From assembly GCF_037038585.1 (NCBI RefSeq), contig NC_092525.1, forward strand, positions 22,278,867 through 22,342,866: a stretch of DNA of 64,000 bases, written 5' to 3'. Position 1 is the first letter of the stretch. Each line of letters opens with the position of its first letter. The position numbers and the translations under genes were made by a program. Shown here in pieces: positions 4,829-64,000 of this stretch. Source of the stretch: Patagioenas fasciata (Eukaryota > Chordata > Aves > Columbiformes > Columbidae). The notes beneath the pieces are model-generated. The model had not been told where the DNA came from, searched no databases, and was given only the letters and a program-made list of their open reading frames with translations.

Positions 4829-21739
<16,911 letters not shown>

Positions 21740-22379
21740 GCTGCGGCGCCCACTGGGCTGCCCAGCACCTCGGCTCCCGGGCGGGAGGTGGGACGGCTAG
21801 CGGGAGGAGCTGGGGCGGGCAGGGGCTGCACCGGCGGCGGGCGAGGCTGCCTGCGGGCGGGAACTGCTGTGCTCGCCCCTCCGACCCGGGGTCGCCTCAA
21901 GGCGGGACGCGGCGGGAAACCGCCCGCGCCGTGAGGTGAGGGGGCAATGAAGCCGCCCGCCCTTGGGAAGAGAGGGAGAGGGTTGTGTGGGGCCGAACGA
22001 CCACTTGGTTGCTCATCTCCAAGGCGGCACTCCCGCCTCGCTCGCCGGGGCTTCTTTTTCCCCTCAGCTCTCGGTCCCACATCGAGAGGCTCAGGGGTCC
22101 ATGCCCACTCGTGAGCCTCGGGGGGTCTCAGAACAGCGCAAGCAAGAAGGTAACTGAGAGGAATTGCACCTCAGTTGGGCTGAGGACCCCTTGGCTTCAT
22201 GAGGGGTAAAAATTCCATGCAATATTTAATGTTTCTGAGAGAACAGTCTACTACTCTTTTCAGAGGGCATTTCTATTTAGTGTTTTAGACCACTTTTTGA
22301 AAAAAAGTGGGACCTGGGCATTCTGTTTAATGAGCCATTCCTGAGGGAACGAGGGGTAGATCTCAGCTCCAGATACCAG

Positions 22380-29200: not shown

Positions 29201-32200
29201 AATAGATTGGCAGCCTCTGAAGCTAGCAAATCTTTTGCAAAAGAACATTTCATTATTAGAAATTGTCTTACTTTTTAACCAAACTGTTCCATAAGCTGAA
29301 ACTTGTGGAAAAATATCTGGTTTGACAAAATTCATAATATCACTTTTTAAGTTTTAAAATGATCAAAGCTCTCTGTATTGGCACATAGAGTCTATTTCTT
29401 GGTTTGACATTATTGTCTCTTTTAATATTTTATTTATCTTTTTAAAGTTTTAAAATTTGAATATCAGCTTTAAAACATTTCTTATCAATTGTATCCAAAC
29501 AAAATGTTTCAGCTTAACCTGAGTGATGGTTTGGGGGTTACTTTTGTTTGAAAACTAAAAATATTTGTACTCCGAACAGATTTGGAAGAGCAGACTTCAA
29601 ATATAAAATGCTTGTATGACAGGAAAACATTTCCCTACCTATCTGTAGTGATTACTGGTCTCTCCAGAGGATGGTAAAGTACCAGTAATAAAATAACTAG
29701 TATTTTGCATCTATATAAGTAGTGACAAATCAGAATGAGTGGCGTGACTCTAATTAAGGGTTAGAGAATCTTACTTGTAATTTAAACTGAGAATTCAGCG
29801 AGCTCTTTAATCACAAGAACAGTTTGACTATTGTGCCCTTTTTTTAAAGGATAGATAAACAATCTGTGGGTTACAGACATTTGCATCTGCAGCTGTTTTT
29901 TTATTTATCATAGTCAGATTTATTTGCTCGATAAATAAAAATATAATGGCTTATCATATAATTTAGATGAAAGCATTTAATTATGATGAAACAGCAATGC
30001 CTTCAGGGAAAGGGCAACAAAAAGACAGAGGACTATTTTATGTAATGCAATAATAGCTTTCTAACTGCATCTTTCACTTTAGAAAACTAAAACTCCAGCT
30101 CCCTGAAGCTATGATTTCTGCAATTTCTGTCTAACAGGGAAGTGTTCCACGGAACTGCTTTTATAGATCAGGTGTTACAGAAGTTCGTTCTTCAAGAAAT
30201 TGTACTTCAGTCTTTTCTATTGTTCTAGAATACTATTATTTCCTTTTATTATTCTCGTTTCATCAATTAGTGCTTAGGAAAGAATCTGTCCCTGACTCTG
30301 TGGATGCTGTTATTTCTGTTTGAGTGGAAGAAAAGAACCTACATAAGCTGAATTGTCTCAAAAAGTTTATGTCTGTGCTTGCCTTCCAGAATACAAGCCT
30401 GCTCACTTAAAATGCAATGATCTTTCAACTCTTCTTATTTTCTGAAATTACTTTAGAAGATCATCTTGCTGAGCAAGTATCATGCAATGCTTTGAGATAA
30501 AGCAGCATGCCTTATCTCTTAGGCCTGTGGATTGACAGCTTGGATCAGGTTTTCTAGGCTAAGAATGGAAAGTTCCTCGGGGCTGACTTCAGCTCCTGTG
30601 TGGAGACAGCTGGAAAAGGTCAGACAAAGCACAGACAGGCACCCACTGTTGCCCATGCCCAGCTGCTGCAGAGTTGGCATAAAAGATGTGGCTGAGTTCT
30701 ATTGTTTCTCATCCCGTATTGTGAACATCACTATTTGTGAGCTGCCAGGTCGAGGAGCTGGCTGTGTAGCATTAGATCAGTCACCTCTGTGATGATGTTC
30801 CAATACAGCTCAGATATTTCCTTCTGCTCTGTGTATGTCTCTGCTATGGAACTTTTATATGGTTCAGGTTAGTTCTCAGTGCTTTCAGTATTTCATCCAT
30901 AAATGGTTTGTAAATTCCTTTTCGTTTTGTCAGTGATGTTTTTACTCCAGGGTCTGTTAATCATGTCACAGACTACCTGATTTCTCTGCTTACTCAACTC
31001 TGTGAATGAATCAGAGGTAATTTCATGTGGCTGTCCAAGTAGCTGCAGTAAAAATTTACATGTGTATAGGACATATTTGATTGATCTAATAATTGAAGTT
31101 AGCATAAAATTTGTTTTGCTTATCAAAGGGATGTCCAGTCTTCTGAAAATACTGACCATGGTTAGCAATTTCTTGAAGCACATAACAATGTATTTGAAAT
31201 TATAAACTGGGTACCATCCAGTAGAGAGAAATTATGTCTGGGTTGCTACTAAGGTTTCAGAATAGAAACTTGAGTGAAATGTCCCTAGCATGTAACTAAA
31301 ATACCAGAGGTGGCTGTAAGGATAACTGGGCTATTTGGTTTTGTTCTTACAGTGCAAAAAACCAAAAGGGGTTAAACCTCTCTGTATTGCTCCATTTAAT
31401 TGTTCTATTTCAATGTAGCATATTCCATTTCAAAGCAGAGCTTTGGATATATGTGGGTCTGATTTTACATTGTTTATGAGACAAAATTTTGAAAGATTAG
31501 AAGGTTCCTGTCTAATTTTGAACTGATCATTAAACTTTAAAAATATTTCTTTTCCCGCTGGTGTGCCACAGGGGGCACATGCCTCCATACTATCATGCAT
31601 CTAGGTGCTTAGTTTAGCATTTAAATCAACATGCCAAGAATTTACGCCTTCAAAGTTGTGTATTGTAAGAGATGGAGTCTTAAATGATCAACAGAATCAC
31701 TCACCATCCATAAATGTGCTCATCTGTTAATGCACACTAATATATTCTCTGCAAAGGAGACAAACTGCAAAGAAAATAATCTCGTGCTCTATATTCAGAG
31801 GTGTTTTACAGTTTTCAGGACTTGGTGTAGGGAAGATCTCTATCCAATGAGTATTGTAACTCATGAGCCAAGAAAGTAATTTCTGATCTCTGTATGCCCT
31901 CTATATAGTTTCAACAGACAAATTCAACCCAGTGCAATTTACTTTGCAGTTTTTCTGAGCAGAAAATCATGAAGCATACCATGACTAGATATGAGTTAAT
32001 CGACAACTAAGAATATTTACTTTTCCTCTGTAACTTTGATTAAAGGACCAAAGCATTTGTTCTACAGACTGATTCCAGTGCAACAAAAGATGGAATACAT
32101 GCCACATGCTTAATTTAATCATGAAAATGTTTCTGTTAACTTCAGAGAGAATAGTTATGTGCTTAAAATCATGTACCTGTTCCAATGTATTGTTGTTTCA

Positions 32201-32293
32201 GAACTCGCATATGTAATACTTACCTTAGTTCCCTTTAAATTGCCAAACTGGTAAGAACACCAACTCTAACAGTTATCAGTATTAAGTTATTCA

Positions 32294-33703
32294 TAGCACT
32301 CAGACATCTGCTCATGCTTCAGACTGCAGAACTTCTTAGCTCATACTAAAATAATAACACTAACAATTACAGCCTCATTGTTCTTTGACAGAAATCCTTT
32401 GAAAGGATGTCAGCAAGAACTCTTTTTATCTGAACAAAAACACAATGTGCAGGTCCCCTGCTCTTAACCCCAGAATGTTTAAGAATCTAGTCTTGTCCAA
32501 TTGCAAAACTATTGACAAGTGAAAGATTTTTTTTTTCTTTGTAATGCTTTTTAAAGTAGCACAAACAATATTTGTCCATATAGTTGTCAGCACCCAAGTG
32601 TACAAATAAGCCTTAATTGACCTGACCATTAACTTTTTCCAACTCATCACTGCCACTATAGCTCTTCAGTATCAAACAGGCTCCAGTTGAAATCAATGGC
32701 AAGTCTTCCGGCTTTGCGAAACAAGAGGGGAAAGAAGAATACTGAAGAACTATTGGAAATAAAAGTGTCGATCCTAGAGTACATTCTATTTCCCATGCCT
32801 GAACAGCTGCTGTCTCCTGAAACCTTGGATTCATCCTATGGAGTGGTCTAAGGAAGTAGGAGCTAGAGGTACTTTACGATTTGCAGAAAGACCCTGAAGG
32901 GCAGTAACAGAAGTACAAGAGCAAAAAGAAAGATCAGGTAAGAAGGTAGAAAGCAGAAGGAAATGAGAAGACAGTTTGCAACCGAAGAATCTTCGGAACA
33001 CACAGGGCACGTGAACATTCAGGTCATACTAATACTAATGAGTATGTTCCAAACTGTATCAGCTACTTCTTACTTGAAGCGTAACTTGAGAGTGCAGGCA
33101 ATTCGTGCTCATGGCAGTGCATATGCCTGTATTTTCCTCCTCAGATGGTGAGAAAAGTGAACTCTACAGCAAGTGCTGCAGAGCTTAATTTTTTTTCCTT
33201 AGAAAGTATGTTTCTGTTTTATAACTGAAGCCTGGATGAGCCCAGACCATGCTTTGAAAGACACCTTAAGCCCTCTCTATTTGATTTATACATGTCCAAC
33301 TTCAAACATAACTATGGATTTGCATAGATATGATCTCACATTCTCTATTAGAGAAATTCTGGTAGTCTAAAGAGACACAATGGCAGTGATCAATCGGAAC
33401 AGGTTCATCCTATACAGACAAATGTTGTTTGTGCTGCTTTTAAAGGCATTGCGAAGCACAAAAAGAGCTTTCACTCATCAATAATACTGCAATTGGACGA
33501 GACTAGATTCTTCTTAAACATTCTGGGGTAAAGAGCAGGGGACCTGTACATTGTGTTTTTGTTCAGATAAAAAGAGTTCTTGCTGACAAAATTTTCAAAG
33601 GATTTCTGTCAAAGAACAATGAGGCTGTAATTGTTAGTGTTATTATTTTAGTATGAGCTAAGAAGTTCTGCAGTCTGAAATCTGGGCAGATGTATGAGTG
33701 CTA
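32294..33703. repeat. Long inverted repeat (about 1.4 kb, arms about 290-375 bp)
   Basis: The left arm 32294-32583 and right arm 33703-33410 are reverse complements, with an identical run of about 87 bp (32318-32404 in the left arm). The arms differ by scattered substitutions and small gaps elsewhere. A weaker inner match continues (32646-32670 against 33391-33366). The outer boundary is abrupt: TAGCACT at the left end, AGTGCTA at the right end, and no similarity beyond. The loop of about 0.7 kb holds no recognisable gene. TA at both outer ends would fit a TA target duplication, so a non-autonomous DNA transposon with long terminal inverted repeats is one reading. An inverted duplication is another. 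A transcript across it would fold into a long hairpin. Confidence 0.9.
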
Positions 33704-34462
33704 CATTTGAAAAAGATGCCATTAAACATTTGTACCACTAATGTAGTATTAAACAATGAAGCATTATGCAACAATTAAACATTTAAAAAATTATTTTAAT
33801 GGAAAAATGTTGATACTCTGATTTTGTCTGCACACGCAGCAAAATCAGATGGGGTTAAAAATTTTAAAATAGAATTGACATCAATTGTATGAGGAGAGAG
33901 TAATTCTTGTAAGGCAAAATGCTAATAGAAGAAATAAATAGTCTTTTCTTATAGGCTGTAGTCTTACAGATGTTCAAATGGCTATTTATATGTCACTGAT
34001 AATCTTTACTGGGTGAAAAGATACAGAAAATCGTCTCATAGTTTTTGGAGAATTTTCACAGACTTTGTCTTCACATTTCTTTCATTGAAGTTTTATAGAT
34101 GTCTTTTCCCCATGTCCTTCTTAATTGACTTCCTAGGCAGATGAAATTAAGTATATTTGGCCTTGGTAACTAAAGATGTATATGTAAGTCTGCCTGGTGT
34201 GAAGTTATGTTTTGGCCCTCTCCCGAGCACATGCCTTAATTCAATCATGCACTTTCTACTCTTTATTTTTTTATTCAGTTTGCAAACAAAATATGACAAC
34301 AGCATTGTAGATGTCAGTGAGATCCCAGTTGGGAAATTCTCATTATTCTGAGCCTTCTTCCTACAGATTCCTGAACCGAATTTGTAGTGTTACCAACAAT
34401 TAATAATTTGAATTGGGAAAGAAACAATTGCTGATGAGTTCTTCTTTCCCAGGAAGGTCAAA

Positions 34463-34468
34463 TTTATT
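34463..34468 (-). terminator. Candidate poly(A) signal of GPX7
   Basis: AATAAA on the minus strand about 185 nt after the GPX7 stop. Further AATAAA-like words occur on the same strand near 34262-34275, so the site actually used is uncertain. Confidence 0.4.
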
Positions 34469-34651
34469 TCAGTTGGAGAAAAAAAAATAAATTACTTTGA
34501 CCATGATAATTTTCTGTTTTCTACATTCTTAGGATGATTTATATAGATCATGATTTCACTTCCCTGTATTCTCTCTTTTGGAATGTGTAAAGAAAAACTC
34601 CAGCTCTAATTATCAATAAAGCTGTAACTGGAATGCTGGGATTTTGGAAAG

Positions 34652-34815
34652 TCATAATTCATCTTTCTTCTTCAGGATGATTTTCCTTACAAGTTCTGTA
34701 ACATAAGGTCTTATTTCTTCAACAGGGGCAGTGGAGTCCCAGGCCTTTACTACTTTCCCATTGGGGTCCACCAGGTATTTCCAGAAGTTCCAGGTTGGTT
34801 CTTCTCCTGTAGATT
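34652..34815 (-). CDS. GPX7: GPX7 coding exon 3 (C-terminus, KDEL)
   Basis: 164 nt with an acceptor ending CTCCCTGTAG. The split codon gives Glu, so the joined protein reads YLIESTGEEPTWNFWKYL, aligned without gaps to human YLAQTSGKEPTWNFWKYL. It ends EIRPYVTELVRKIILKKKDEL in effect, with TGA at 34654-34652. The terminal KDEL is a canonical ER-retrieval signal (human has REDL). Confidence 0.97.
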
Positions 34816-35082
34816 CTACAGGGAGGGGAAAAAAAAAGAAAAAAAACATGTGGAAACTTAGAAAAGAAAACCATGTTATCCAATTCCTGACATTTGTTCA
34901 TGTCAGTTTGATGATTACCTTCTCAGAGGAAGGAGTGTAAAATTAAGAGGGAGTTCAGACTGAATAAGATTAATTTTCTGACAGACAAGGAGCTTTAACT
35001 AGACAGAAGCCCTTGGAGACTAATGGAAACAGTCACCCTCCAGACAGACAGGACAAAGCAATATGATCGGTGTTAAAGTGTG

Positions 35083-41100: not shown

Positions 41101-42594
41101 TGAATTGTGAACGGGGGGGAGGAGGAGTTTGATCAGAAAAGATTCAGACCTCTCATTTGGTCCAAAACTATCAGAATCCCTTTCTACTGAGCTCAGGACA
41201 ACATACATCTCCTCCCATGGGCCTTCTCTGGCTTGATGCCCTGGGCTAGTGAGCTCAGGCACCTCAGTAAGGTACCTGGACAGGGGGAAAAGGAAGGTGG
41301 AAACACAAAGCAGTAGAATAAGGGTGAAAACAAAAAGTGGTGCCTGCCTTTTTAGGCAGCAGATAAACTGTTGGACTGCCTGGCTGTATCACACAAGATG
41401 TGTTACTTGAGTGCTAAGAGGAGCAGTTGTGGGCTTTACGTTGATTTTAGCTTCTCTAAGCTGTGAACGTGGCTATAAGAGCTTATAGTATTATGCCCCC
41501 TGTGTGCTAACTTCCCTTTGCACTCTTCCACCACTACTGACAATCTTTCCCAGATGGTCAAACCACTGAAAATAAAAAATTTAAAACGTTATGTTCAAGG
41601 AAATAGTTCTTAAAATGGGAAGGAAGGCTCTGCCTTGAACTCCTTAATATGTAAATTAAATTTAAAAGACACCATAAAAAAATATATATGTCTATTATGC
41701 CCTTCTGCACATTGGTCTGGCACACTAAAAAGTGACAAAAGGGAGTAGCATGATGTTGCTACAATTTCACTCTACACTGATATTAATTATTTCATCATGT
41801 CTCTTGCTTTTTTACTAATTATGGTGAAATCTGTTAACTCCATTAGCCACTGATTTTTTTTTTTTTTTTTTCATGCAGAACATAACAATGGAATGGAATT
41901 TAGGCAAAAATAATTTACTAAAAGCCATGCAGTTACAAGACAGAAATAAGCTCCAAAAGTAAGTTACACAAAGGTACAAACTTCCTAAGCTTCAAATATA
42001 TTATAGAGTACATTTGTGTATATATATACATTATATAATGTATAACAGCTGCTACCCAGGGCAGTTCATCCCGCTGAAGGCAAAGTAGTCTGTCCGTCCG
42101 TCCCTGCCACGTCTGCAGGCAGCAGCCCTCACAAGAGCAGAGGCGAGACCGCGAACGTTCTACTGAGCGCAAAAAGCTGCAGAACGGTCCCAAAGGCAGC
42201 ATGCAGGAAGAAGAGCTGCGAACCCAAATCTAGGGGCACGCCGGCACCAAGTTAATGTACAATCTTGCCACCCCCACTCGGGTTTTTACAGACATGCGTG
42301 GACCGGCTGATTAGTGAGTCCGGGCCAGAGCTGCCCATCTCCGCGCAGACTTACCGAGCCCCTGTACTTCTCCAGGGAGACTAGTTTGCCCCTGATGTTT
42401 ACAACTTTGAAAGTGTAAAAATCAGGCTCTTTCTGCTGCGTAGCAGAAAACGCTAAGAGCAGGAATGCAGCGATCGCAAGGAGCATGGCTAGAGGGATGA
42501 GGAAAACTTTGGGAAAGGCAGAGGAAGGCTGGTGCTCCACACTGCCCTCAGGATCTAGCATGCTGCACCGCCCTGCTGCGGAGCCACTTGTCAT
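34652..42594 (-). CDS. GPX7: GPX7 gene (glutathione peroxidase 7), three exons
   Basis: ER-resident thioredoxin-fold peroxidase that uses a cysteine instead of selenocysteine. Known roles of the family are clearing H2O2 in the ER and passing oxidising equivalents to PDI. Exons 42594-42355, 36907-36646 and 34815-34652 join to 666 nt (221 codons plus stop) with agreeing phases 0 and 1. From the first ATG, the peroxidatic cysteine is C91 in ECGYTD, the second cysteine is C120 in the FPCNQFG signature, and the WNFWKY block (W176, N177) supplies the other catalytic residues. The C-terminus is KKKDEL, a KDEL ER-retrieval signal. The FKVVNIRGKLVSLEKYRGS segment and synteny with TUT4 and SHISAL2A identify GPX7 rather than GPX8. 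Oddity: starting from the first ATG gives a 36-residue extension ahead of a hydrophobic segment. Starting at M37 gives 185 residues, close to the human 187. Confidence 0.95.
35085..35115. repeat. (TG)n microsatellite
   Basis: About 15 uninterrupted TG units inside GPX7 intron 2; likely length-polymorphic. Confidence 0.95.
36400..36545 (+). mobile_element. CR1 3' fragment, diverged
   Basis: The words ccctggagataattttagaa, ccttgtgccggaggatgg, actaggtgacttctgaactcc and aattctgtgcgatgag follow the order of the CR1 3' UTR (gaggttttcaaggc, ccttgtgcagggggatgg, actaggtgacttcc, attctatga). The copy is 5'-truncated and old. Confidence 0.65.
36646..36907 (-). CDS. GPX7: GPX7 coding exon 2 (catalytic cysteine)
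   Basis: 262 nt with acceptor TTTTTCTTCAG and donor ATTG followed by GTGAGT. It encodes VSLVVNVASECGYTDSHY, then FNVLAFPCNQFGQQEPD, KEIESFARKTYG and PAFKYLI, close to human GPX7 over its whole length. It ends in phase 1. A CR1 3' fragment lies about 100 bp beyond the donor, inside intron 2. Confidence 0.97.
39115..39300 (+). repeat. MIR-like ancient SINE fragment
   Basis: Words in MIR order: ccaaagcgctgcacttacat, cttaattacagctcagcac, gtgttgtaggtgggtagg, then ggagttctgactcccag near the end. Compare aagcgctttacaaacatta, gtgaggtaggta and gagtcctgactcccag of MIR/CORE-SINEs. The order is kept and divergence is moderate. Confidence 0.55.
40044..40068. repeat. (TA)n microsatellite
   Basis: About twelve TA units in GPX7 intron 1. 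Confidence 0.9.
42355..42594 (-). CDS. GPX7: GPX7 coding exon 1 (N-terminus and hydrophobic segment)
   Basis: 240 nt, 80 codons, donor TCG followed by GTAAGTCTG. Residues 1-29 are polar (MTSGSAAGRCSMLDPEG onward), residues 30-51 are hydrophobic (VFLIPLAMLLAIAAFLLLAF), then QQKEPDFYTFK starts the peroxidase fold. ATGs occur at codons 1, 12 and 37. The M37 context (GCCATGC) has G at -3, and M1 (ATCATGA) has A at -3. The first start would give a signal-anchor or long signal peptide; the third gives an ordinary cleavable signal peptide like that of human GPX7. Confidence 0.9.
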
Positions 42595-42697
42595 GATAGG
42601 AAAGCGCTGCCGCAAAGAAAGGACTGCTGCAAACCGAGCTTTTGCAACAGTCCTGCTCCTGCAAGGGCTTGGGAGCTGTGGCCATAGCAGGACGATG

Positions 42698-42704
42698 TAT
42701 TTAT
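42698..42704 (-). promoter_or_regulatory. Candidate TATA-like box of GPX7
   Basis: ATAAATA on the minus strand about 100 nt upstream of the first ATG. This would place a start site near 42670 and a leader of about 75 nt. A short upstream ATG (near 42678) could lie at the very start of the leader. No other core-promoter signal was seen. Confidence 0.35.
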
Positions 42705-42709
42705 GGAGA

Positions 42710-45270
42710 ATTCAGATAGTCTACAATGGAGTATTTCGTAGTGGTAGTGGGGTATTAAGTAAGGCATTTATGGGTACAGGACGAATGAAAGTGCTAGTTG
42801 GCTCAAAACCAGTAGTACTGCATGTGGCTGTGGGACAGCAGTCAGATTTAGAGATCTGCTTTAACTATGCCCTAGGAAAATAAGGGATTCTTGTGATTTT
42901 TGATGGATTTGCAAGTGCCTTTTTTTAGTATACTAACTATAGCATCTAGAAACTACAGTGTAATGTCAAAGGATATCAGTGGCTTGGTTGCTAGTGGTTA
43001 CTGGTGCAAGTGCTCTGAACAAGTCTCACAGTGTACGGTCAGAAAAAACAGAGTTACAAACACGCCGTGCACAGTATTGTGTGAAATGGAGCAACACAAG
43101 CTCGGCCTTCAGGAAACTCACCTTGCATGCACCTGGCTGGCGAGAAGTGAGTGGCCAGACCACTGGTCTTCACAGTGCGATCCAGGAGAAACCACATTAC
43201 CAAAGGGTTTTTAAGCAAGAAAGACGCATTAAGCATCAGGAACTGAATTTGGTACCAAAGCTTTCAGATAAGCAGAGCCAAGCCACTTCTTCTGTGCACT
43301 GTTGGCATTCTTGGGTTGTCTGCACAAAAAAAATAGCCATTTGTACAATTTGCTGCTACACCTGCTGGAAGAAAAGGGTTTGTATATATAAAGTAACAGC
43401 AATAGAAAGCATTTGATGGTCATTGATTTCTTCTTGGACTGAGAAACTGGCCCTCCATGCCTATGATTCTGATAATTCTTGCCAAAGAAAAGCAAAACGT
43501 AGTGATTTACAGAAAACAATTAAGTAGCATATCTAAGGCATATTGGAAATCTATCTTTTGAAGAGCAATTTACATTTTATAATCTTACTTTATGCCTTTT
43601 TTTTTAGCTGAGTTTTGGTAGATCTTTGACATCGTGATTGTATTTTGTTAGGTAATTCAAGCATACTTGGCATTAATGTAAACAAAGAAGCTATGTATAA
43701 TTATTTGGAAAAAATCTACTTTTTTAAAATTTCAGATTTTTCATATTTTTATGTCGGCTTGACATCCAGTATCAAGAAATAATGCAATCTGCTACAAAAA
43801 TGTATAGATGGAAAATCATCTACCATGCTATCTATCTATGAAGAAGATACACTGTGCTAAGAATCCTAAGTTCTCATCTTCTCAGGTAAAATGTTGTCTT
43901 TCTGTTTACTTTCCTGGCTGCATTGTTGACCAAGAACCTTTCCCTTAGAAAGGTTTAGAGTTTCTTCAAACACAGCTGGAGACGGAGAATACATTTAAAT
44001 AAATTTTTAAAACCCAGTAAATCCTAAAAATACTTTTAAAAAATCATTCCAACAATGAAAACCATTAAACTAAGCATTTTTGGTGAGAAAATTAAGAAGA
44101 AATTTACAAAACACTTTTACATTTTTTGAGGCATGATGCTATAGCAGTTTGGATATGGGACTTAAAATGTGGCATCATACTGCAACATGAGACAAGCAAG
44201 GTTTTGCTCTGGAAAAGGACTTTACAAAATCTGCTTCCTGCAGGTTTATAATTATTGTCTCTGATTCCTAGATTAGATTTAGTGGCTTTCAGAATTGTAT
44301 TTTCTCCTACAAACTGAGCCCGGAATCTGAAAGTTTTTGATCACTGGCACTGAGTTGGGAATTCTTTAAATAATGGCCAGCTGGCAGTGTCACTCGGCAT
44401 CCTCTTTTACTGCCATATTTCTACACTGCTCTCCACAATAAACCATTTTTTTAAGATCAGCAAAGGAGGAAGAATTGTTGCTGAATACACACAGAGATAC
44501 ACTATGTCAAAGGTGTTGGCTTTATAATGATTCAAGTTTTTAGAGCCAAACTGCAGAAAGATTTTATATGAAAGTCTGTCCAGTTATTTGAACTAAATCT
44601 GATATATTCCAATACATTTCAGCTTGCAGGAAAAACGCCAGTCAGGTTTGCAAACTGGTGTATGTTTGCTCACTAGCATGTTTAAATGTTGATCTAGGAG
44701 CACCTGAGCCAGTAGCAAATATAATTTAGTTACTTTTGCAATTTACTCTTTGGCCTACTAGACCTAATAAAAATCTTTCTCAAATAGGGCTGGACAAACC
44801 CCCACCCAGCTAACCTTGGCTGTCCCCAGCGGCACTGCAGCAGCCATTTCTGTCACTGCTGACCTGGGCTGTGCTGGCCCGTGTTCCTGAAGGTGGGAGC
44901 TCTGCCCTACCCTCAGCCACCCAGTCCTGGTTTTGTACAATGTTAAGTTCAAGTGAACCACAAAAAGACAATTAGTGCTAAGGATCGGGCTGATTTTGCA
45001 ATATATTCAGAAGTATGTTTTGTCGACGTTTATGGAATCCAGCATTATAGATTTTGCAACTTTTGTTTATCTACATGGACTCACTGAGGTGGTGTTTCCA
45101 GCACTACTATTCACATTGTTTTTAATACTTTCCTTTGAGCCCCTTTAGCAGTTCAACATTAATCATTATGCTCCCTGTTTTCCTGAAAGGCCTCCTTAGC
45201 CTGGGCTAGGCAGTGCCAACACCATTTTGCTGCCAAGAAGGGGCAGTTCTGTCCCGGATCACTGCAAGAT
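42710..45270. other. Intergenic gap between GPX7 and TUT4 (head-to-head)
   Basis: About 2.6 kb upstream of both genes. Plus-strand open frames at 42900-43416 show no family features. The left two-thirds is AT-rich and the sequence turns GC-rich from about 45200 into the TUT4 CpG island. Confidence 0.5.
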
Positions 45271-47978: not shown

Positions 47979-50900
47979 AACCAGAGGTGGATGCACACAT
48001 TTATGTACTAATACTGTATCCCTGGTTCATAATTTTTGGTTCTAATGTTCTAGCAAATCTTTGGGTAAAGGCAATTTGTCCTGTGTTCTTAGATTATTTT
48101 TTTTTTTTCCTGTTGATGTATGAAATAGTATTTCTAGCAAGAAGTAACTTTCAGATTTTAGTTTTTGGTGTCAGCTAAGCGTGATTTGGGAGTCTGGAAT
48201 CAGTTTTGTGTTACAAACTGTTGTGACTCGGTCTGTATACCAACTGTATGGATATATTTTTGAAAACTTTTCTAAAGTAGTGGTTTTCAGCATATTACTT
48301 TCAGTAGTGAAAATGCTGGATCCTGGTAGAGCAGATGTGAGAATGCTGGTAGAAGATCCATTTTCTTTAGCTGTAGTTTGTGAACCAGTTTGCGACTGGT
48401 ATGAAGTAGTTAAAGGTTGCCCGTTCCTCAAGGTTTAAATTTGAGTGAAGGGATCACTATTGCTCAAATACAAGATCCAGATAAACTTGTACACCACAGG
48501 TACATACTGCTGTATTTTTATGTAGTGCAAACACCAAGTGTAAATGAAGGTTTAAGAATAAGATGGATAAATTGAGTTTAAATGTGTAGCTGCTGTTTAA
48601 ACCAGTTTTGTGATCCGTTTAGGCCTCTGGAACCTGGTTTAGCCTCTGAGAAGCCTTAAACCTAATCAGTGCTGTACTGTTTTTTTCCAGCCTCCTGTCC
48701 TGTATTGGTACAAATATTGTATTTGTTTGTTTTTAAAGTTAGAGCTACCTTGGATCAGTTCCCTGATCTGGTTACAGCGTGTATCTTGCAGCATACAGCG
48801 ACACTCCAGGCAGGTGGTTCCCCTCTTCTGGCTTCAGTGCTCACTTCAGTTGATTGTGAAATGTTTAAAGGACCATTACAGTAAAACCTAGGGTCAGAAC
48901 CAACAGGTACTAAAGCACTAGGAATCTTTACATGAAATACAGAGTTAAGGGAGGGTGTTGTAACTTCTTTACACAGCTGGTGTGACTGAGAGAGGGTGGC
49001 TTTCCTGAGTTTGGCACGGGGCTCATCGGCAGTGACAGGTTCAGAAAGCGGTAGTTCTTGGCGTTTGGTGATGTGCCTCTCTCTTACCTTCCCAGTGAGT
49101 CATACCGTGTTGTAGGAGAGACAGCGGGTGTCAGTGCAAAGAGAGAACAGTCTATAACAAGCACATCTTGTATGGATCTCTCCTATCCAGTGTCTTCTCC
49201 TAATTTCTTAATTTAATTGTAAGATATTTGCACCTGTTTATGTTACTATGTTTTGCATCAAGCAAAGCCTTTCCTGTTACTTCGGTCATTCAGTAGTACT
49301 TTTGTCCTTTATAATCTTGTTACAGTTATATAGGTGTTTATCTAATGATCAGCCCTTAGTTTTCAGTCTACCACGTTGTAAATACAACATCAGAGCTTCC
49401 TAGTGAGTTACAAGTCTTCCCTAAGCCCGGAATGCTAGTTTCATTTGCATCCCTGGTTTGTGTGTTAAATTTTGTGTGTGCTTCCTTCTAGATAGAGTTC
49501 AGTAGTATTACATTTACTAGCCTAAATTCTATAGCCTGGAGAAACAGGAAGATATGAAATGCTGTATAGCACTTATATGTCTGTTACTAAGAATACCAAA
49601 GGGTTTATTGCTGGAGGAGCCTGAGGCGCTTTAGTTACCAGTAATCTCTGATAGTTTTAGTTAGTTTGGAAAAACATCAAAGATTGAGGATAGCTTGTAC
49701 TAAGTTATGTCTAGTTCATCATAAAACAAACGTAAACATGTGATAACTTTTTTTAAAAACTATTGGCATAGAACATGGGAGAAGCTTGAATGGTTTGTAG
49801 AAGTCCTCAGACCAAAAAAAAGGGCCTAAGGCTGTAAACGGTCCAGGAAAGAGCCGCCCCTCCAGCACATTTGGGATGGCTGGAGACATTACCTGTGCTG
49901 CAATCTGAGCAGAGCACAGTGGACAACCTTTTGTCATGTCTCCGTCTGTAACCTTTGTTTGCTGAATTTCCGTTCATTTTTGCTGAGGAAGTTCAGCTGG
50001 GCTATATTGGTAATCAGGCCGGGGGGTTAATCACCTCACGTACTACTGGAAGGCTGGCTGGGGAGATTGGAGCTTACGGGACAATCATAATGGCACAGAT
50101 AAGAGCAGATAAAATAGAGGTCTCCCTATCTCAAAGGAGGAGTGTTTTATAGAAAGAGGACAATAACAATTATGTTTGTAGTACTTTCGCCGTTTATATT
50201 TAATCTAGTACTCCCTGGGGAAATGAAACTCGTGAGACTGTTGTCTTTGCCTTTAGTTGCGCTACTACACACTTGTTACTTTTGGACATTTCACCTAGTT
50301 GGTATCAAATTTTAGAACATATTTGCAATAATGTCAAAAGATGCTTGAGTTTCTTTATGTTTTCTGGAAAAATCATGCCTCGGTAGAGGAGAGCTCTCTG
50401 CTGAGGGGATGCAGGAGGAAGTTATGTTTCCTCTTAGGGAGTAGCTGAGAATGTTGTGTAAGTTCCTCCAGCATGTCTCCCGTGCTTGCCCCATGGGCTG
50501 TGATCGATAGTGTGACAGAGGAGCACAAAATGAATGTATAGGAAACCAGGTATAATCAGTTCTGCTGCTAATTAAATGATTACAAAAGAAATGCTTTGCA
50601 AAAGAGCAACTCAGAATGCCCACAGTTTAACTTGAGCTTCATCTTTGTCAAGGCCCTGTTATGGCAAGGTCTGACCCAAAATGTATGTGTTTGAAGGACT
50701 TGGATACAATTGAGCAACTTGAGAAGAACAAGTGGAAGGGCAAATGAGTAGAAATATCTTCTTGAAAGTGTTGGTTTTTTTTAAATTCTTATTTGGAGGT
50801 AAGCATTACCCTGGGTTTTTGCAATTCAAATGCAGGATTTTCTAATACTAGTCTGAGAGAAGAAGGAAACAAAAGAAACTGGCAGAAATGAAAGTGAAAC

Positions 50901-52642: not shown

Positions 52643-52690
52643 AAAGATAGCAACATCCCTAAGTAGAAAGATAGCAACATTCCTAAGTAG
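52643..52690. repeat. 24-bp tandem duplication (two units)
   Basis: The unit aaagatagcaacatccctaa gtag occurs twice back to back, with one mismatch (ccct versus tcct). It is a local slippage product in TUT4 intron 1. Confidence 0.95.
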
Positions 52691-58100: not shown

Positions 58101-61100
58101 CTGTATTGAATTTCCTAAGTCTTCAACAAAAATATGAATGTTTTGACCCCAGAAGGACTCCTGTTGAAAAGTATTTGGCACTACATTGGTGGTGAGCCAG
58201 TGTGTGTATGTGTAGTCCGAGGACAGTTTTCTGAGCAGTTTTGCTCTCACCTTACTGTTCTTTATTTATTTTAAAAATTCAAGGTACAACATCTGCTGGT
58301 GCTTTTTCAAGTGTTACGATTTTATTTAAAAAAAAAAAAATCTTAAAATTGGTGTATTGCAATTTGTTTATAGCAGATCAGTTTGTCACCTATGACCTAT
58401 TTTATGTGCTTATTAATAACATAATTTATTACAGAATTTTTCTAGGTACCACCTCTGACTGGTCTTTAATTCCTTGGCTCATTCTCTTTAGCCATTTAAA
58501 TATATTCTTAAGTTTCTCTTTCCTAGTGGTCTGGAACCTTCCCATTCTCTGAGTTCTTTAAAATACAACCACCTCTGAGATGGGTTAGTATCCAAGCACT
58601 AATGTCATGAGGCCTGTCTTGTTTAGATGCATCCGTCTTACCCAAGTAGTAGTCTGTAGCTTTTTTTGTCTTGCTATTTTGAGTTCTTGTCCCTTTCATT
58701 AGTCTTAAGCGTAACTAGATGAGTAAGAAAGGCTTTGCAATAGAGACAAAAGGCATTACATGATTCCACCTTTCTGCCAACATCTGTTGATATAATACTG
58801 CTGATCAGTATTGTAAAGAAATAGTCCATTTCTTTTAATATTATTATTGCTAATATTCATTCCGTTTTAGAAGAGAGGTAAAATATTTTTATCTCCTTCA
58901 ATCATCGGATGTTGGATACTTGAATCTTCCGAGCTAGGCAAGTGTAACTACCTATAAGTTGTTTTCCAAATAGATGCTTAGTTTCATCTTATAAGGTATC
59001 TATCTCATAGAAAATGAGGATTAAGAGAATTAGTAGTAAAAGCATAATGACCATGTTATTTTAAAGTGATATTTACGTTTAGTTGAAGGGTATCAGACTT
59101 TTTTTTTTTTTTTCCAAAAGCAAAAGATCAGACACAGTTAAGTGGAAAAACTTGCCCAAATTTAGCAGTGGTTTAAGTTTCCTTGTAGTGAGTCAAATTT
59201 GTTTAACTGATCTATAGTCCACCTTAGTGTTGTTATGTCACTGTTTAAACATCTGGTGTTTTCAGTGTACTTCTCGGTTTTGGTAAATATAGATGTATTA
59301 GAACTAGGATGAAAATGATAAGCAGGGGTTTTAACCGGTATTAGTTATTGGAAGAATGCTAACAAGTCTGTAAAAAAACTAAGGCCTTTTTATCTTTCCA
59401 AAGAGCATATAAAAAAGTTTCAAATATCTATAACTGTGTTGTTAGAGCAAGAAAATAGAACTGCAGGATGAGACAGTTTAAAGTGGAGTATTTGCAAACA
59501 ACCCCTCATCATTGCAGAGGTGGTCCTGTCTGCCTTTTATTCTAGTAGTTCTTAGTGGTTTCCTGGTTGAAAAGACTCCCCAGTACCCCCTCTTAGACCT
59601 TAGGAAAATAGTCATTTCCTCCCCCTTCATCTTCTCCTGAGGCTTTGCAGCTTCTTGCAGATTCTCAGAGCTCTCCATCTGTGCGCTCTATCTCTCCCAG
59701 CCTGTCTTTACAAAAAGATGCTTGTTCTTCACGTTTCTCCAGTTTTAAGCATTGCAAATTATTCGTCAAAATGGCATAATCTTACCCCTTCTCAGAGGAT
59801 CCCACATTATCCAGAGTATAGTCATTAGTAAGTCAGAAACTGGCTATCTTCCTACTTCCTGGCCAGCCGCACCCTTTTTAATGGAACAAAAACTGCAGTA
59901 CTTGCAGAGTACGCTGCAGATACGCCAGCCAAACACCACCACCATCTGTCATAACGTGTATAGTAGATGTGATGAACACTCCACATTTTCTCATCAGAGA
60001 AAAGAGGATAGATGCTGAGATTTCATAAATCCATAGTTATTAAAAGCTTGAGCTGTCAGGGGAGCAGCTTACTGGCCTTTAGGTCAGCCCTAAGAGGCAT
60101 AAACTCTTCAGTCTTAATCTTGCCTCACTAGAAGTTACTGAGGTGTTTCTGCTCCGGCAGGGGGATTGGACTGGATGATCTTTTGAGGTCCCTTCCAATC
60201 CCTAACATTCTGTGATTCTGTGATTCTGAGAAGTGTCATATTCAAGTTATCTCACTTCTTTTCCTCACTTTCCCCACTTGTCATATGGGTAAAAATTAAT
60301 TTCCACTGTGTTTTTTGGAGATTAATGTTTGCAAGGCACCTTGACATTTCAAGTGTTGCATAATTGTTAAATACAATTTATTACTCAAATAATTTTTTCA
60401 GACACTATTGGCAGCAACATTTTCTTTTAATCTATGGCCATTTTTCCTCAGCGCTCCCCAGAATACACCAGCTGTCAGTATCTATGCAAGCTCTGCTTAG
60501 TTCACATTGAAAATATCCAGGGAGCTCACAAGCATATTAAAGAAAAACGGCATAAGAAAAATATAATGGTAAGTTAACAAATTTGATTTTTGACTGATAT
60601 ATGTTCCCCCCCTTTCTTTTTTTTTAAATGAAACAATTTTTTTTTTTTTTTTTTTTTGTTATGTGGTACGTTTCCTCTGTTTGGTCATGCTCATTCAGCT
60701 GAAAGTTTGTGTGCTGAGCAGGGATCCACAAATTTCTGTTGCTTTTTTTTTCTGTTTGAGAGTAAGGACTTGATGATCTGTCCAAGCAGAGAGGAAAGAA
60801 CATTTTTGATTATTGCTTCTGAATTAGTGTCTCTGAATAGTGGGCAGTTGTTCATACTTGTAGAAACAGAAAGCAGGATAACTTAAGGTAACTTACTTGA
60901 AAACATGTTTAGTTTTTCTGTTTCTTAAAAAGAAAAAATAATTGCTGGTAGCAAGACCTCCAGGGACTGGAGGTGGAGTTGGGGATGTAGTTTTTGTCTG
61001 TTTTTTTCTCTGTTATCTGACTTGTGAGATTTTTAGCAACATCCTTTCTGTTGATGGATAAGCAGAGGGGATAGTGTGTCTAGACTAAAAAAACAGAGTT

Positions 61101-62935
61101 AAAGCAGGGAGAGATTCAATTCCTGAGTCACTCATCATTGCCCTGGGTTTATGTCTAATATGAAAAACAGTTCTAAGCTTTTCAAAGAGTAAAAGAGTTT
61201 CCTTATCAGATACTATGGTGTTACCATTTGCTTTGCTTTAAAGAACTGTTACATGCATGAAATCCAGTAAATGGCACAGAGGTTTTCTTGCCAACCTGTT
61301 TTTTGTAAATGCTGATGACTACAAATTCCCAAGTGTGTAGGTTTTTGTGATTCAGGTGGTTAAAATTACTCTTCCTACAACCATTCCCCCAAACTCAGTC
61401 ACCTAGTTACTCCTGTTTCCACGTATTTCTTGCAATACTTACTTTGTAATCATTGCTCTTAATTCTATCATATATGCAAGCCATCACCTGGAAAACTCTG
61501 AACACCATAAATCCAGTTTACATCTCAGAAAGTAACATATTTTTATTACGTTGAGTTAGTATTTGTAAAGGATTCTGGTTCTTTTGCTGTCTGCTAAATT
61601 GTGTAATGAAAAAAAATTAATAAACTGGCAACAAACCAGCCCCATGTCTGATACGGAAACGCTTTCATACCATGTTTTTTGTGTGCTCAAGGAGAGAGAA
61701 ATTGAGGAATGAGGTTTCTGTACCACTAAATGGAAATGCTAGAGGAAAGGGAGCAGTTTCAGCTTTTAACACTTGTCTTCAAATAGCTTTACATTGTGTG
61801 CCACATCAGTGATAAGAAGTATCTGTCTAAATGTTACTTCATAAAATACTCCTGTTTACTGCTCTTACTATGAGATACATGACTATCAAATAAGCTTAGC
61901 AGCAGCTGTGGTTTCCCCACTCAAGAAAAACCCTAAAGCAGTGACATTAAAAAACCCACAGTCCTTTACAAAGGCACATACTCTTTCTTCTGTTCTTATT
62001 TGAACAAATTTAGCATAAGATTTGAGAGATGCAGCCTAGAAACAACCAAACATTTTCATACTGCACTGTGTTTTCTTAGTGCATAATTATTTTCTCGTGA
62101 CTATTTATTTCTGTTGTCAGTCACATATTCCGTTTAGTTGATGAATTTGTGAAACAAGTGATGTACTTACTCCCAATGACTCGATGCATCTGACATTTCT
62201 TGCTGTTGGATTAAATTGATTGAAATTTGATACACTAAAAATAGCACTTTTTGGCACCAGCTGTTCAGGCAGCAATGAGGCTCAGCCCCAAATTTCTTGG
62301 AGCCAGGAATACTTTTCTGCTTCTGATATCTTTCCTTCAAGTACAGTCCACCCTGAAAAAAATCTGTGTGACTCTAGAAAAACTTTCTCAGCTCAGTTCC
62401 TTTGACTATATAGGAACAATTACAGCTTTTCATTTCCTTGGATGAATTTGGTTTCGGAACTGTCAGCAAACGTGGTTCAGGAATGTAACACAACAGATTT
62501 TCTCCCCAGTTGCCAGCTGTGAAACAACATGTTCTCTTTAAGTACTGAGCATCTACTGCCATTTCTGGGAGCCACACAAGCACATTGGCCAGTTAGGCCG
62601 GGCTTAATTCCTACCTTTGAAAGTGTTTGGTCAGGATACCATGGAAATAGCAGAGCACAAACGGCAAACAGTATGTTCTAATATCATGCAGTTGTACGAG
62701 ATAACCTTTTTCTCTTAAAATATCAGTTTTTGCTTTTATCATCCAACAATTATTCAGGAAAAGCAAGAAGAAAATGAGCTGCGTGCCCTTCCACCCCCCT
62801 CTTCTGCACAGTTGGCTGCTCTGAGTTTTACACTCATTGAGGCAGCAAATGAACAAGGCATATCAGATGATGACTTCAGAATTCGTCAAGAAATTGTAAA
62901 CGAGATGGAGAAAATTATTCAACAGCCCTTACCAG
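54589..62935 (+). CDS. TUT4: TUT4 gene, first four coding exons (partial, runs off the window)
   Basis: Terminal uridylyltransferase 4 (ZCCHC11), a cytoplasmic enzyme that adds U residues to let-7 precursors (with LIN28) and to mRNA tails. Coding exons 54589-55150, 56866-57029, 60452-60568 and 62758-62935 give 340 codons plus one base, with consistent phases 1, 0, 0 and 1. The visible part covers the disordered N-terminal region (about residues 1-205), a conserved helix with ERLERDYISRLEK, the C2H2-type zinc finger (LCKLCLVHIENIQGAHKHIKEKRH split over its motif) and the linker toward the first, catalytically inactive nucleotidyltransferase module. The active domain and CCHC knuckles lie outside. 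TUT7 has a similar layout, but the N-terminal sequence, the KEKRHKKNI exon and the GPX7/SHISAL2A neighbourhood fit TUT4. Confidence 0.95.
55151..56865 (+). other. TUT4: TUT4 intron between coding exons 1 and 2
   Basis: 1.7 kb, AT-rich, with the canonical GTGAGT donor and a CTTTCTTTAG acceptor. A somewhat GC-richer patch lies at about 56220-56410. Nothing recognisable is inside. Confidence 0.9.
56866..57029 (+). CDS. TUT4: TUT4 coding exon 2
   Basis: 164 nt. After completing a Ser codon it reads to ADYLENTTVIDESNLTVEQQ and LGLKQAEERLERDYISRLEK, matching human MDYLENATVIDESALTPEQR and LGLKQAEERLERDHIFRLEK. The donor is AAA followed by GTAGGT, phase 0. The exon is too short and too frame-shifted relative to its flanks to be noticed without homology. 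Confidence 0.96.
57690..58720 (-). mobile_element. Ancient CR1-type LINE remnant
   Basis: As printed, the order of phrases (ccagaattggacatgcaatt, cagctgaggtctta, agcacaccctgtattgaat, actggtctttaattccttgg, gtctggaaccttcccattct) follows the long reverse-complement CR1-like repeats common in reptile and bird genomes. On the minus strand this corresponds to the middle of the RT ORF. It is highly diverged and broken by unrelated AT-rich pieces, such as around 58240-58430. Confidence 0.5.
60145..60230 (+). mobile_element. CR1 3' tip, short truncated copy
   Basis: About 85 bp matching the 3' end of the copy at 15.5 kb nearly base for base (cagggggattggactggatg, ttttgaggtcccttccaatc), with a tail of repeated tgtgattc units. 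It is severely 5'-truncated, as most bird CR1 copies are. Confidence 0.92.
60250..60385 (+). repeat. MIR-like ancient SINE fragment
   Basis: The segment ctcactttccccacttgtca, tatgggtaaaaattaatt, then ttaatgtttgcaaggcacct follows MIR order (ctcagtttccccatctgta, aaatgggaataat, ttaatgtttgtaaagcgctt). Divergence is moderate. Confidence 0.55.
60452..60568 (+). CDS. TUT4: TUT4 coding exon 3 (C2H2-type zinc finger)
   Basis: 117 nt, exactly 39 codons, acceptor TTTTTCCTCAG and donor ATG followed by GTAAGT, phase 0 at both ends. It reads RSPEYTSCQYLCKLCLVHIE and NIQGAHKHIKEKRHKKNIM, almost identical to human. Ligands visible are the LCKLC cysteine pair and the histidines of AHKHIKEKRH. In TUT4 this N-terminal finger contributes to RNA and LIN28 recognition. 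Confidence 0.97.
60569..62757 (+). other. TUT4: TUT4 intron between coding exons 3 and 4
   Basis: 2.2 kb, AT-rich. It contains a 21-base poly-T run (60637-60657) close to the donor side and ends in an acceptor with AACAATTATTCAG. No gene or clear transposon is seen. Confidence 0.9.
60637..60657. repeat. Poly-T run (21)
   Basis: Uninterrupted T stretch within a TUT4 intron; a likely indel hot spot in assemblies. Confidence 0.9.
62758..62935 (+). CDS. TUT4: TUT4 coding exon 4
   Basis: 178 nt, acceptor TTATTCAG, donor CCAG followed by GTATAC, phase 1. It reads EKQEENELRALPPPSSAQLA, ALSFTLIEAANEQGISDDDF, RIRQEIVNEMEKIIQQPLP, matching human EKQEESELRSLPPPSPAHLA and onward. The split codon would give Glu if the next exon continues the human LPECSLRLYGSS, where the first nucleotidyltransferase module begins. 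Confidence 0.96.
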
Positions 62936-64000
62936 GTATACATAGTGTTCTCCATTTTCTTTAGGTGAAAATTTTTCTTTTTATTTGTTTTTACACGGAT
63001 TTTGATACCTTCATTAATGATTAATTAATGCATTTTGGGGTTAAATTATGTTTATATTATACAATACAAATATATACAGGCATTTTAATACAGACTGGCA
63101 GTTGATTTAAAAGAAGCTAACAAACCTACAAAAAGAGAAAAATACAGTTGTGCTTATTTTTTGCTTCTTTCTCATATGTGTTTATTGAAGCTATTAGTCC
63201 TCTTTGAAGTGATGATTTCTGCTGAAAAGTGGAAATTTCCAGGGCACAAAATATTTCCTTCCATGTTTAAAGCCTCAGCCACTGAGGATCTCCCTCAGGC
63301 TCTAATCCTACAAACCTTCACACCTGTACCTTGCCTAGCATTACTGAATATCTGTGGCTGTTAAGGTAGAGATTGTGGTTTGGTGTGGTTTTTTTTTTTT
63401 CCCAAGTGGGGAAACTTAATTAAACTAATATAAATGTAGCAGGAGGGGAAAATGAGGAGGACTTTCAAATACATTTTTTCCTACTGGACCTTCAGTTGTT
63501 TATAACATCTTTTAGTGCAGATAAATGTTGCATGAGACAATTTTTTTTAAAAGCAGAGTTCTAGGAAGAAAAAAACTAGACCTCAGCTATGAGTGATTTT
63601 GGTAAGCATATGAGACATTTGCAGTACTTAATTGTGATCTGAAATACCTGCAGGTATTAAGCAATAGCTGTTAAAACAAATAATTAAAACCAACAACAGT
63701 TATTGTTTAGCAGATATTTCTTCTCCTGTATATTTATAGTTTGTGGGTCCCAAAATGAGCAGAGGTGTTCTTTGAGATCAACTATGGCTTCCCAAAGTCT
63801 CTTGAATTGTCTTAAATAAGTACAAATGTTAAATTCAGTTAACCACAAATAAATGTCATACCTCATCTGCCTTTTTCTTGATTGAGTGCTTTATGTTGAT
63901 TAAAAATTAGAGTAATTAAAAAAAAGGTCTGAGTAGGTTAAATGTTTGTTCCACTTTTTTTTTTTTTTTCCATCAGTGGGTTAGTGAAGTTCAGTACATT
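62936..64000 (+). other. TUT4: Start of the next TUT4 intron (to window end)
   Basis: AT-rich, no exon matching the expected CSLRLYGSS segment. A strong acceptor-like site (long T tract ending CCATCAG at 63977) precedes the window end, but the sequence after it does not continue TUT4 in the required phase. Confidence 0.8.

What the first reader, a model, noticed from the sequence alone, without database searches (positions are those of the whole stretch)
32294..33703. Long inverted repeat with near-identical arms in the SHISAL2A-GPX7 intergenic region
Two arms of about 290 bp are reverse complements, including an 87-bp run without a mismatch (32318-32404), with a loop of roughly 0.7-0.8 kb. 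Similarity stops sharply at the outer TAGCACT/AGTGCTA ends but fades gradually on the inner side, with a further diverged match at 32646-32670 versus 33366-33391. The sharp outer edge flanked by TA suggests a TA-targeting non-autonomous DNA transposon with very long terminal inverted repeats. The uneven identity instead suggests gene conversion within an older inverted duplication. If transcribed it would form a long double-stranded RNA hairpin, a candidate for ADAR editing or for small-RNA production. I cannot name a known family.
Basis: partly seen in the sequence, partly recalled or inferred. Interest (0 to 1): 0.72.

Follow-up and report, generated by a model that had tools for sequence, protein, structure and literature searches.

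The report
Inverted repeat patched by gene conversion
Between two genes in what is likely a bird genome lie two mirror-image copies of a roughly 290-base sequence whose outer two-thirds are nearly identical and whose inner third differs at about one base in five, a scar most likely left when one copy partly overwrote the other, and probably an ordinary one.

Summary
The inverted repeat is real: arms 32294-32583 and 33410-33703, 294 columns, 89.1% identical, E 5e-106. No other inverted pair of 40 nt or more within 5 kb was reported in the window. Identity does not fade smoothly. From outside inwards mismatches are 5 of 24, 2 of 173 and 16 of 83 columns, and step models fit better than a gradient or uniform divergence. 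The outer edges end in TA inside the palindrome; no flanking duplication of 4 exact or 7-10 near-exact bases was found. Ten of 16 internal frames had no Pfam match, and no second arm copy was found in the window. Most likely this is an old inverted duplication whose outer arm was later homogenised by arm-to-arm copying. A transposon with long, inwardly degenerate terminal repeats is the main rival. Both strands are predicted to form a long hairpin if transcribed, but candidate GPX7 poly(A) signals precede it and no RNA data were available. No bird genome was searchable: the own-genome search was unanswered in 10 of 10 tries, so copy number and empty site remain untested. Probably ordinary.

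The parts
32294..32583 (+). Left arm of the inverted repeat
   Evidence: Self-blastn, 294 columns, 89.1% identical to the reverse complement of 33410-33703, E 4.8e-106
33410..33703 (-). Right arm of the inverted repeat
   Evidence: Same match
32318..32493 (+). Low-divergence tract of the left arm, inferred to be homogenised: 2 mismatches in 173 ungapped columns, plus one replacement of 32405-32407 by four other bases and one 3-base indel
   Evidence: Best-scoring low-divergence block, 0 of 2000 permutations as good; differences listed
33500..33679 (-). Counterpart of the low-divergence tract in the right arm
   Evidence: Alignment
32494..32576 (+). Inner arm block, 16 mismatches in 83 columns, taken (inference) as the undisturbed divergence of the arms
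33417..33499 (-). Counterpart of the inner block in the right arm
32294..32317 (+). Outermost 24 columns, 5 mismatches, 4 of them within 32312-32317 adjoining the tract; whether this is a separate old segment or one clustered change is open
32628..32669 (+). Diverged inner match to the reverse complement of 33367-33408, 74%
   Evidence: 6 of 500 shuffles reach its score
33367..33408 (-). Right counterpart of the diverged inner match
32584..33409 (.). Loop between the arms; no Pfam match in 10 of the 16 frames of 40 aa or more that overlap the element, no Rfam match

Best explanation
This is an inverted repeat whose two arms likely arose long ago as an inverted duplication and whose outer roughly 175-200 bp were probably overwritten later by copying from one arm to the other. 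Shown: the arms, their collinearity, and the step from about 1% to about 19% mismatch. Inferred: that the 19% inner block records the original age and the 1% block a later homogenisation, by non-reciprocal arm-to-arm gene conversion (preferred) or by polymerase template switching between the arms. How the first inverted copy arose (break repair, template switch, or a decayed element) is not known. No function is needed to explain the pattern. At recalled avian neutral rates of 1.5-2.5e-9 per site per year the inner block would be roughly 46-76 My old and the tract roughly 2-4 My, with very wide error.
For: Mismatches are 5 of 24, 2 of 173 and 16 of 83 columns along the arm; 0 of 2000 permutations reach the score of the low block, and Fisher p is 5e-8, for a block chosen from the same data. 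AIC 137.8 (two steps), 147.1 (one step), 156.5 (gradient), 161.0 (uniform); BIC orders them the same way. Kimura distances are 0.012 for the tract and 0.229 for the inner block. The alignment stays collinear across the step, so one duplication can account for both blocks. Arms of inverted repeats are known to be homogenised: mammalian sex-chromosome palindromes by gene conversion (PMC8981503 and PMC3723533, titles and abstract openings in the listings), and short repeats by template switching (PMC8604942 and PMC8794818, passages). Conversion frequency is reported to fall with distance between copies (PMC2720389, passage); here the arms are about 1 kb apart.
Against: No outgroup is available, so the direction and even the occurrence of copying are inferred from two sequences. 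Conversion between copies that already differ by about 19% is thought to be inefficient (recalled), so repeated early events may be needed. The outer breakpoint is not robust: with the 32312-32317 cluster counted as one change, a single step fits better than two (BIC 137.0 against 142.5; uniform 149.0; the gradient was not refitted for this case), which leaves room for an element with near-identical outer and degenerate inner terminal repeats. In that fit the step lies slightly further in (5 of 204 against 15 of 71 columns). The sharp outer edge is as expected of a mobile element as of a duplication breakpoint.
Confidence: 0.55

Rival explanations
1. A non-autonomous DNA transposon, about 1410 bp, inserted at TA, with long terminal inverted repeats that are near-perfect outside and imperfect inside.
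For: Sharp outer edges, no homology above chance in the 40 bp outside them (489 of 500 shuffles as good); TA at both ends; the single-step fit when the outer mismatch cluster counts as one change. Mariner-type elements and their deletion derivatives with TA duplications do exist in birds (galluhop, PMC5556988, passages).
Against: TA is inside the palindrome and not informative; no duplication of 4 exact or 7-10 near-exact bases within 3 bases of the edges (shorter or more diverged ones were not scored). The galluhop paper gives about 28 bp as the usual Tc1-mariner terminal repeat, against about 290 bp here. No Pfam match in the 10 of 16 frames tested, which a non-autonomous element need not have. 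No other copy of either arm found in the window; the 17-base outer word has two other places with 4 mismatches (48332, 49567), not tested against chance but unremarkable at that laxity.
Confidence: 0.25
2. Two independent insertions, in opposite orientation, of one unnamed ordinary dispersed repeat, partly homogenised later.
For: Both arms share the same outer end; close inverted copies of repeats are the usual source of double-stranded RNA in animals, in chicken chiefly CR1 (PMC5625713, passages). Genome copy number is untested.
Against: No second copy of either arm in the remaining 62.6 kb: 16 arm hits at E up to 1, the best at 0.13, 10 of them over the T run at 32527-32536. The arms lack the CR1 3' end motif, though CR1 bodies were not searched for. 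Equal outer ends and a collinear inner match need coincidence of two truncations (inference).
Confidence: 0.12
3. A functional long hairpin RNA locus in which selection for pairing keeps the outer stem near-perfect.
For: Predicted folds are dominated by the arm duplex, -641 kcal/mol on the minus and -655 on the plus strand for 1441 nt (no shuffle control is given at this length). On the plus strand 10 of 15 transition differences would be G-U wobbles, 5 on the minus strand.
Against: The 10 to 5 split was not tested formally and is weak. No Rfam match at E up to 1 in 32000-34000. Candidate GPX7 poly(A) signals at 34463, 34270 and 34262 come before the repeat; no transcript data were available. 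Compensated changes, the usual sign of selection on pairing, cannot be seen in one genome.
Confidence: 0.05
4. Assembly or read artefact.
For: Fold-back artefacts do create inverted copies (recalled).
Against: The arms differ at 23 of 280 ungapped columns and by indels, which a copied read would not.
Confidence: 0.03

Closest known systems
Gene-converted palindromes of mammalian sex chromosomes (PMC8981503, PMC3723533; titles and abstract openings in listings only)
   Same: Inverted arms kept near-identical by arm-to-arm copying
   Different: Those have arm identity above 99% and, for one human palindrome, multi-kilobase tracts; here a block of about 0.2 kb in a 290-bp arm, not shown to be sex-linked
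Template-switch homogenised inverted repeats (PMC8604942, PMC8794818; passages)
   Same: Imperfect inverted arms turned into perfect ones
   Different: The yeast study searched arms of 7 bp or more with spacers up to 70 bp; here the tract is about 175 bp and the spacer about 0.8-1 kb
Galluhop mariner elements and their deletion derivatives in birds (PMC5556988; passages)
   Same: Similar size class (full-length about 1.2-1.3 kb) and TA at the ends
   Different: The paper gives about 28 bp for terminal repeats of the superfamily and reports TA duplications in most galluhop-like sequences; a duplication is not shown here.
Inverted CR1 pairs likely to form edited double-stranded RNA in chicken (PMC5625713; passages)
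   Same: Two inverted copies close together that could pair if transcribed
   Different: These arms lack the CR1 3' end motif and no transcription is known

Membership tests
Gene-converted inverted repeat | Inverted arms in one locus | tested here: met
Gene-converted inverted repeat | A block of arm identity significantly higher than in the adjoining homologous sequence | tested here: met
Gene-converted inverted repeat | Arms of one species more alike than each arm is to its orthologue | not testable with these tools
   No bird genome in the collections searched; own-genome search unanswered
TA-targeting DNA transposon with long terminal inverted repeats | Terminal inverted repeats with a sharp outer edge | tested here: met
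TA-targeting DNA transposon with long terminal inverted repeats | Target-site duplication outside the repeats | tested here: inconclusive
   Only TA, which is part of the palindrome
TA-targeting DNA transposon with long terminal inverted repeats | Several dispersed copies with the same ends | tested here: inconclusive
   None found in the 64-kb window (two 4-mismatch matches of the 17-base end word); the genome could not be searched
TA-targeting DNA transposon with long terminal inverted repeats | Transposase or its remnant (autonomous relatives) | tested here: inconclusive
   10 of the 16 frames of 40 aa or more, no Pfam match at E up to 1; non-autonomous elements lack it anyway
Functional hairpin RNA | Strand folds into a long duplex | tested here: met
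   Predicted only
Functional hairpin RNA | Transcription and small-RNA or editing signal | not testable with these tools
   No RNA data available

The most novel reading that the evidence does not exclude
A single-copy hairpin locus in birds, tens of millions of years old, whose outer stem is repeatedly re-perfected by arm-to-arm copying and which makes long double-stranded RNA downstream of GPX7.
Probability: 0.05. Interest if true: 0.55.

Novelty: new member of a known kind. Interest (0 to 1): 0.2.

Why it matters
As it stands, it is one more inverted repeat in intergenic DNA, useful mainly as a small example of likely arm homogenisation over a short tract with a spacer of about 1 kb. If orthologues showed an ancient repeat re-homogenised several times in different birds, it would give a natural assay of conversion between short inverted arms.

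Tried and rejected
Rejected or weakened: smooth inner fading (step models fit better). CR1 origin of the arms: the CR1-type 3' end motif is not in the arms, but CR1 bodies were not searched for, so this is weakened, not excluded. Rfam RNA gene: no match at gathering threshold in the window or at E up to 1 in 32000-34000. Flanking duplication: none of 4 exact or 7-10 near-exact bases. Position inside the GPX7 3' UTR: three AATAAA signals precede the repeat; weaker variants, such as ATTAAA at 33795, also lie there, and read-through is not excluded. Strand bias of wobble pairs: 10 to 5, not tested formally. An AT/GC asymmetry in the inner block (12 AT-left/GC-right to 2, p 0.013, one of several tests made) could not be polarised without an outgroup.

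Led nowhere: exact scans of viral and prokaryote contigs with a 30-base core word (0 matches each), as expected of collections of viruses and prokaryotes. Nine literature searches (one search returned no paper) gave analogues; none was made with the gene names, so they do not show that this repeat is undescribed.

Full report
Observation. A self-comparison of the 64-kb window finds the inverted pair 32294-32583 / 33703-33410, 294 columns, 89.1% identity, E 4.8e-106. One search splits it into three ungapped pieces. (seed 11, arms of 40 nt or more, up to 5 kb apart) reports those three pieces and no other inverted pair in the window; it does not list the diverged inner match, so weak pairs can be missed. 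The perfect 87-bp run 32318-32404 is as described. The diverged match, 32628-32669 / 33367-33408, is reached by 6 of 500 dinucleotide shuffles; nothing above chance lies further inside (395 of 500 as good) or in the outer flanks (40 bp: 489 of 500; 300 bp: 82 of 500).

Setting. GPX7 is on the minus strand: the exon 2 frame matches glutathione peroxidase 7 (2p31) at 7e-47 and Pfam GSHPx at 3.8e-30; the exon 1 and exon 3 frames (42286-42711, 34652-34897) are assigned by recall of the protein and had no Pfam match. Shisa_N at 21554-21796 minus (1.5e-9) fits SHISAL2A, and a TUTase match at 62719-62964 plus (2.6e-20) fits TUT4; these two gene names and the expected gene order are recalled. An avian-type CR1 3' end at 60206-60225 (motif recalled) suggests a bird; the species is not known. 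The repeat edge lies about 0.95 kb past the GPX7 stop. Minus-strand AATAAA signals at 34463, 34270 and 34262 lie between the stop and the repeat, so it is probably outside the GPX7 mRNA (predicted).

Anatomy. From the outer edge inwards the mismatches are 5 of 24, 2 of 173 and 16 of 83 ungapped columns. A scan for the best low-divergence block returns left-arm 32318-32493, and 0 of 2000 permutations reach its score. AIC is 161.0 for uniform, 156.5 for a gradient, 147.1 for one step and 137.8 for two; BIC 164.7, 163.8, 158.0 and 155.9 (breakpoints counted as parameters). The outer boundary is less certain: if the cluster 32312-32317 is one event, one step is preferred (BIC 137.0 against 142.5; uniform 149.0), with 5 of 204 columns against 15 of 71, and the gradient was not refitted for that case. 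An inner step, near 32494-32506, appears in both treatments. Exact 95% intervals for the three mismatch rates are 7-42%, 0.1-4.1% and 11-29%.

Mechanism. A collinear repeat with about 19% divergence in one block and about 1% in the adjoining block is most simply read as an old inverted duplication with later homogenisation of one block. Two routes are known: gene conversion between arms (mammalian palindromes; titles and abstract openings of PMC8981503 and PMC3723533 seen in listings) and template switching (PMC8604942 and PMC8794818, passages). The yeast template-switch study searched spacers up to 70 bp, and this tract and spacer are much longer, so conversion is preferred, by inference. Against it: conversion across 19% divergence is thought to be inefficient (recalled), so homogenisation may have been recurrent from an early date. 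The rates used for the ages are recalled, and the intervals are wide.

Transposon rival. The outer edges are sharp and end in TA, but TA is its own reverse complement and lies within the match, so it cannot show a duplication; no duplication of 4 exact or 7-10 near-exact bases was found within 3 bases of the edges. Ten of 16 internal frames of 40 aa or more had no Pfam match. Neither arm has another copy in the window: a lax search outside the repeat gave 16 arm hits, the best at E 0.13, 10 of them over the left arm's T run; the loop gave one marginal hit, 32860-32958 against 34512-34606 inverted, 64.7% over 102 columns, E 0.021. The 17-base outer word has two further 4-mismatch matches in the window (48332-48348, 49567-49583). 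Genome copy number, the decisive test, could not be run: the own-genome search was unanswered in 10 of 10 attempts. This rival therefore keeps 0.25.

RNA rival. Both strands are predicted to fold into the arm duplex (-641 and -655 kcal/mol; no shuffle control at this length). The metazoan editing study attributes most hyper-editing to long double-stranded RNA formed by inverted repeats, in chicken chiefly CR1 (PMC5625713, passages), so editing would be expected if the region is transcribed. Nothing here shows that it is.

Verdict. Interest is low (0.2) because the pattern needs no new mechanism.

Noticed in passing
15449-15527 and 60141-60219: A 79-bp direct match, 91% identical, that looks like the 3' end of CR1 retrotransposons; the second copy runs into the CR1-type terminal motif at 60206-60225 (identification recalled).
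   Followed up: partly
6262-6516 and 15121-15450, + strand: Two reading frames alike at 47% over 55 residues, probably decayed C-terminal ends of the CR1 reverse transcriptase protein (recalled).
   Followed up: partly
32684-32708: A stretch in the loop resembles a palindromic motif that I recall as frequent in reptile genomes; possibly an old element relic, not verified.
   Followed up: no
32860-32958 and 34512-34606: Marginal inverted match between the loop and the GPX7 3' end region, 64.7% over 102 columns, E 0.021; may be chance.
   Followed up: no
34652-34897, - strand: The GPX7 frame ends in KKDEL, an ER-retention-like tail; the human tail is recalled as REDL.
   Followed up: no
52643-52690: Two tandem copies of a 24-bp unit, 95% matching.
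   Followed up: no
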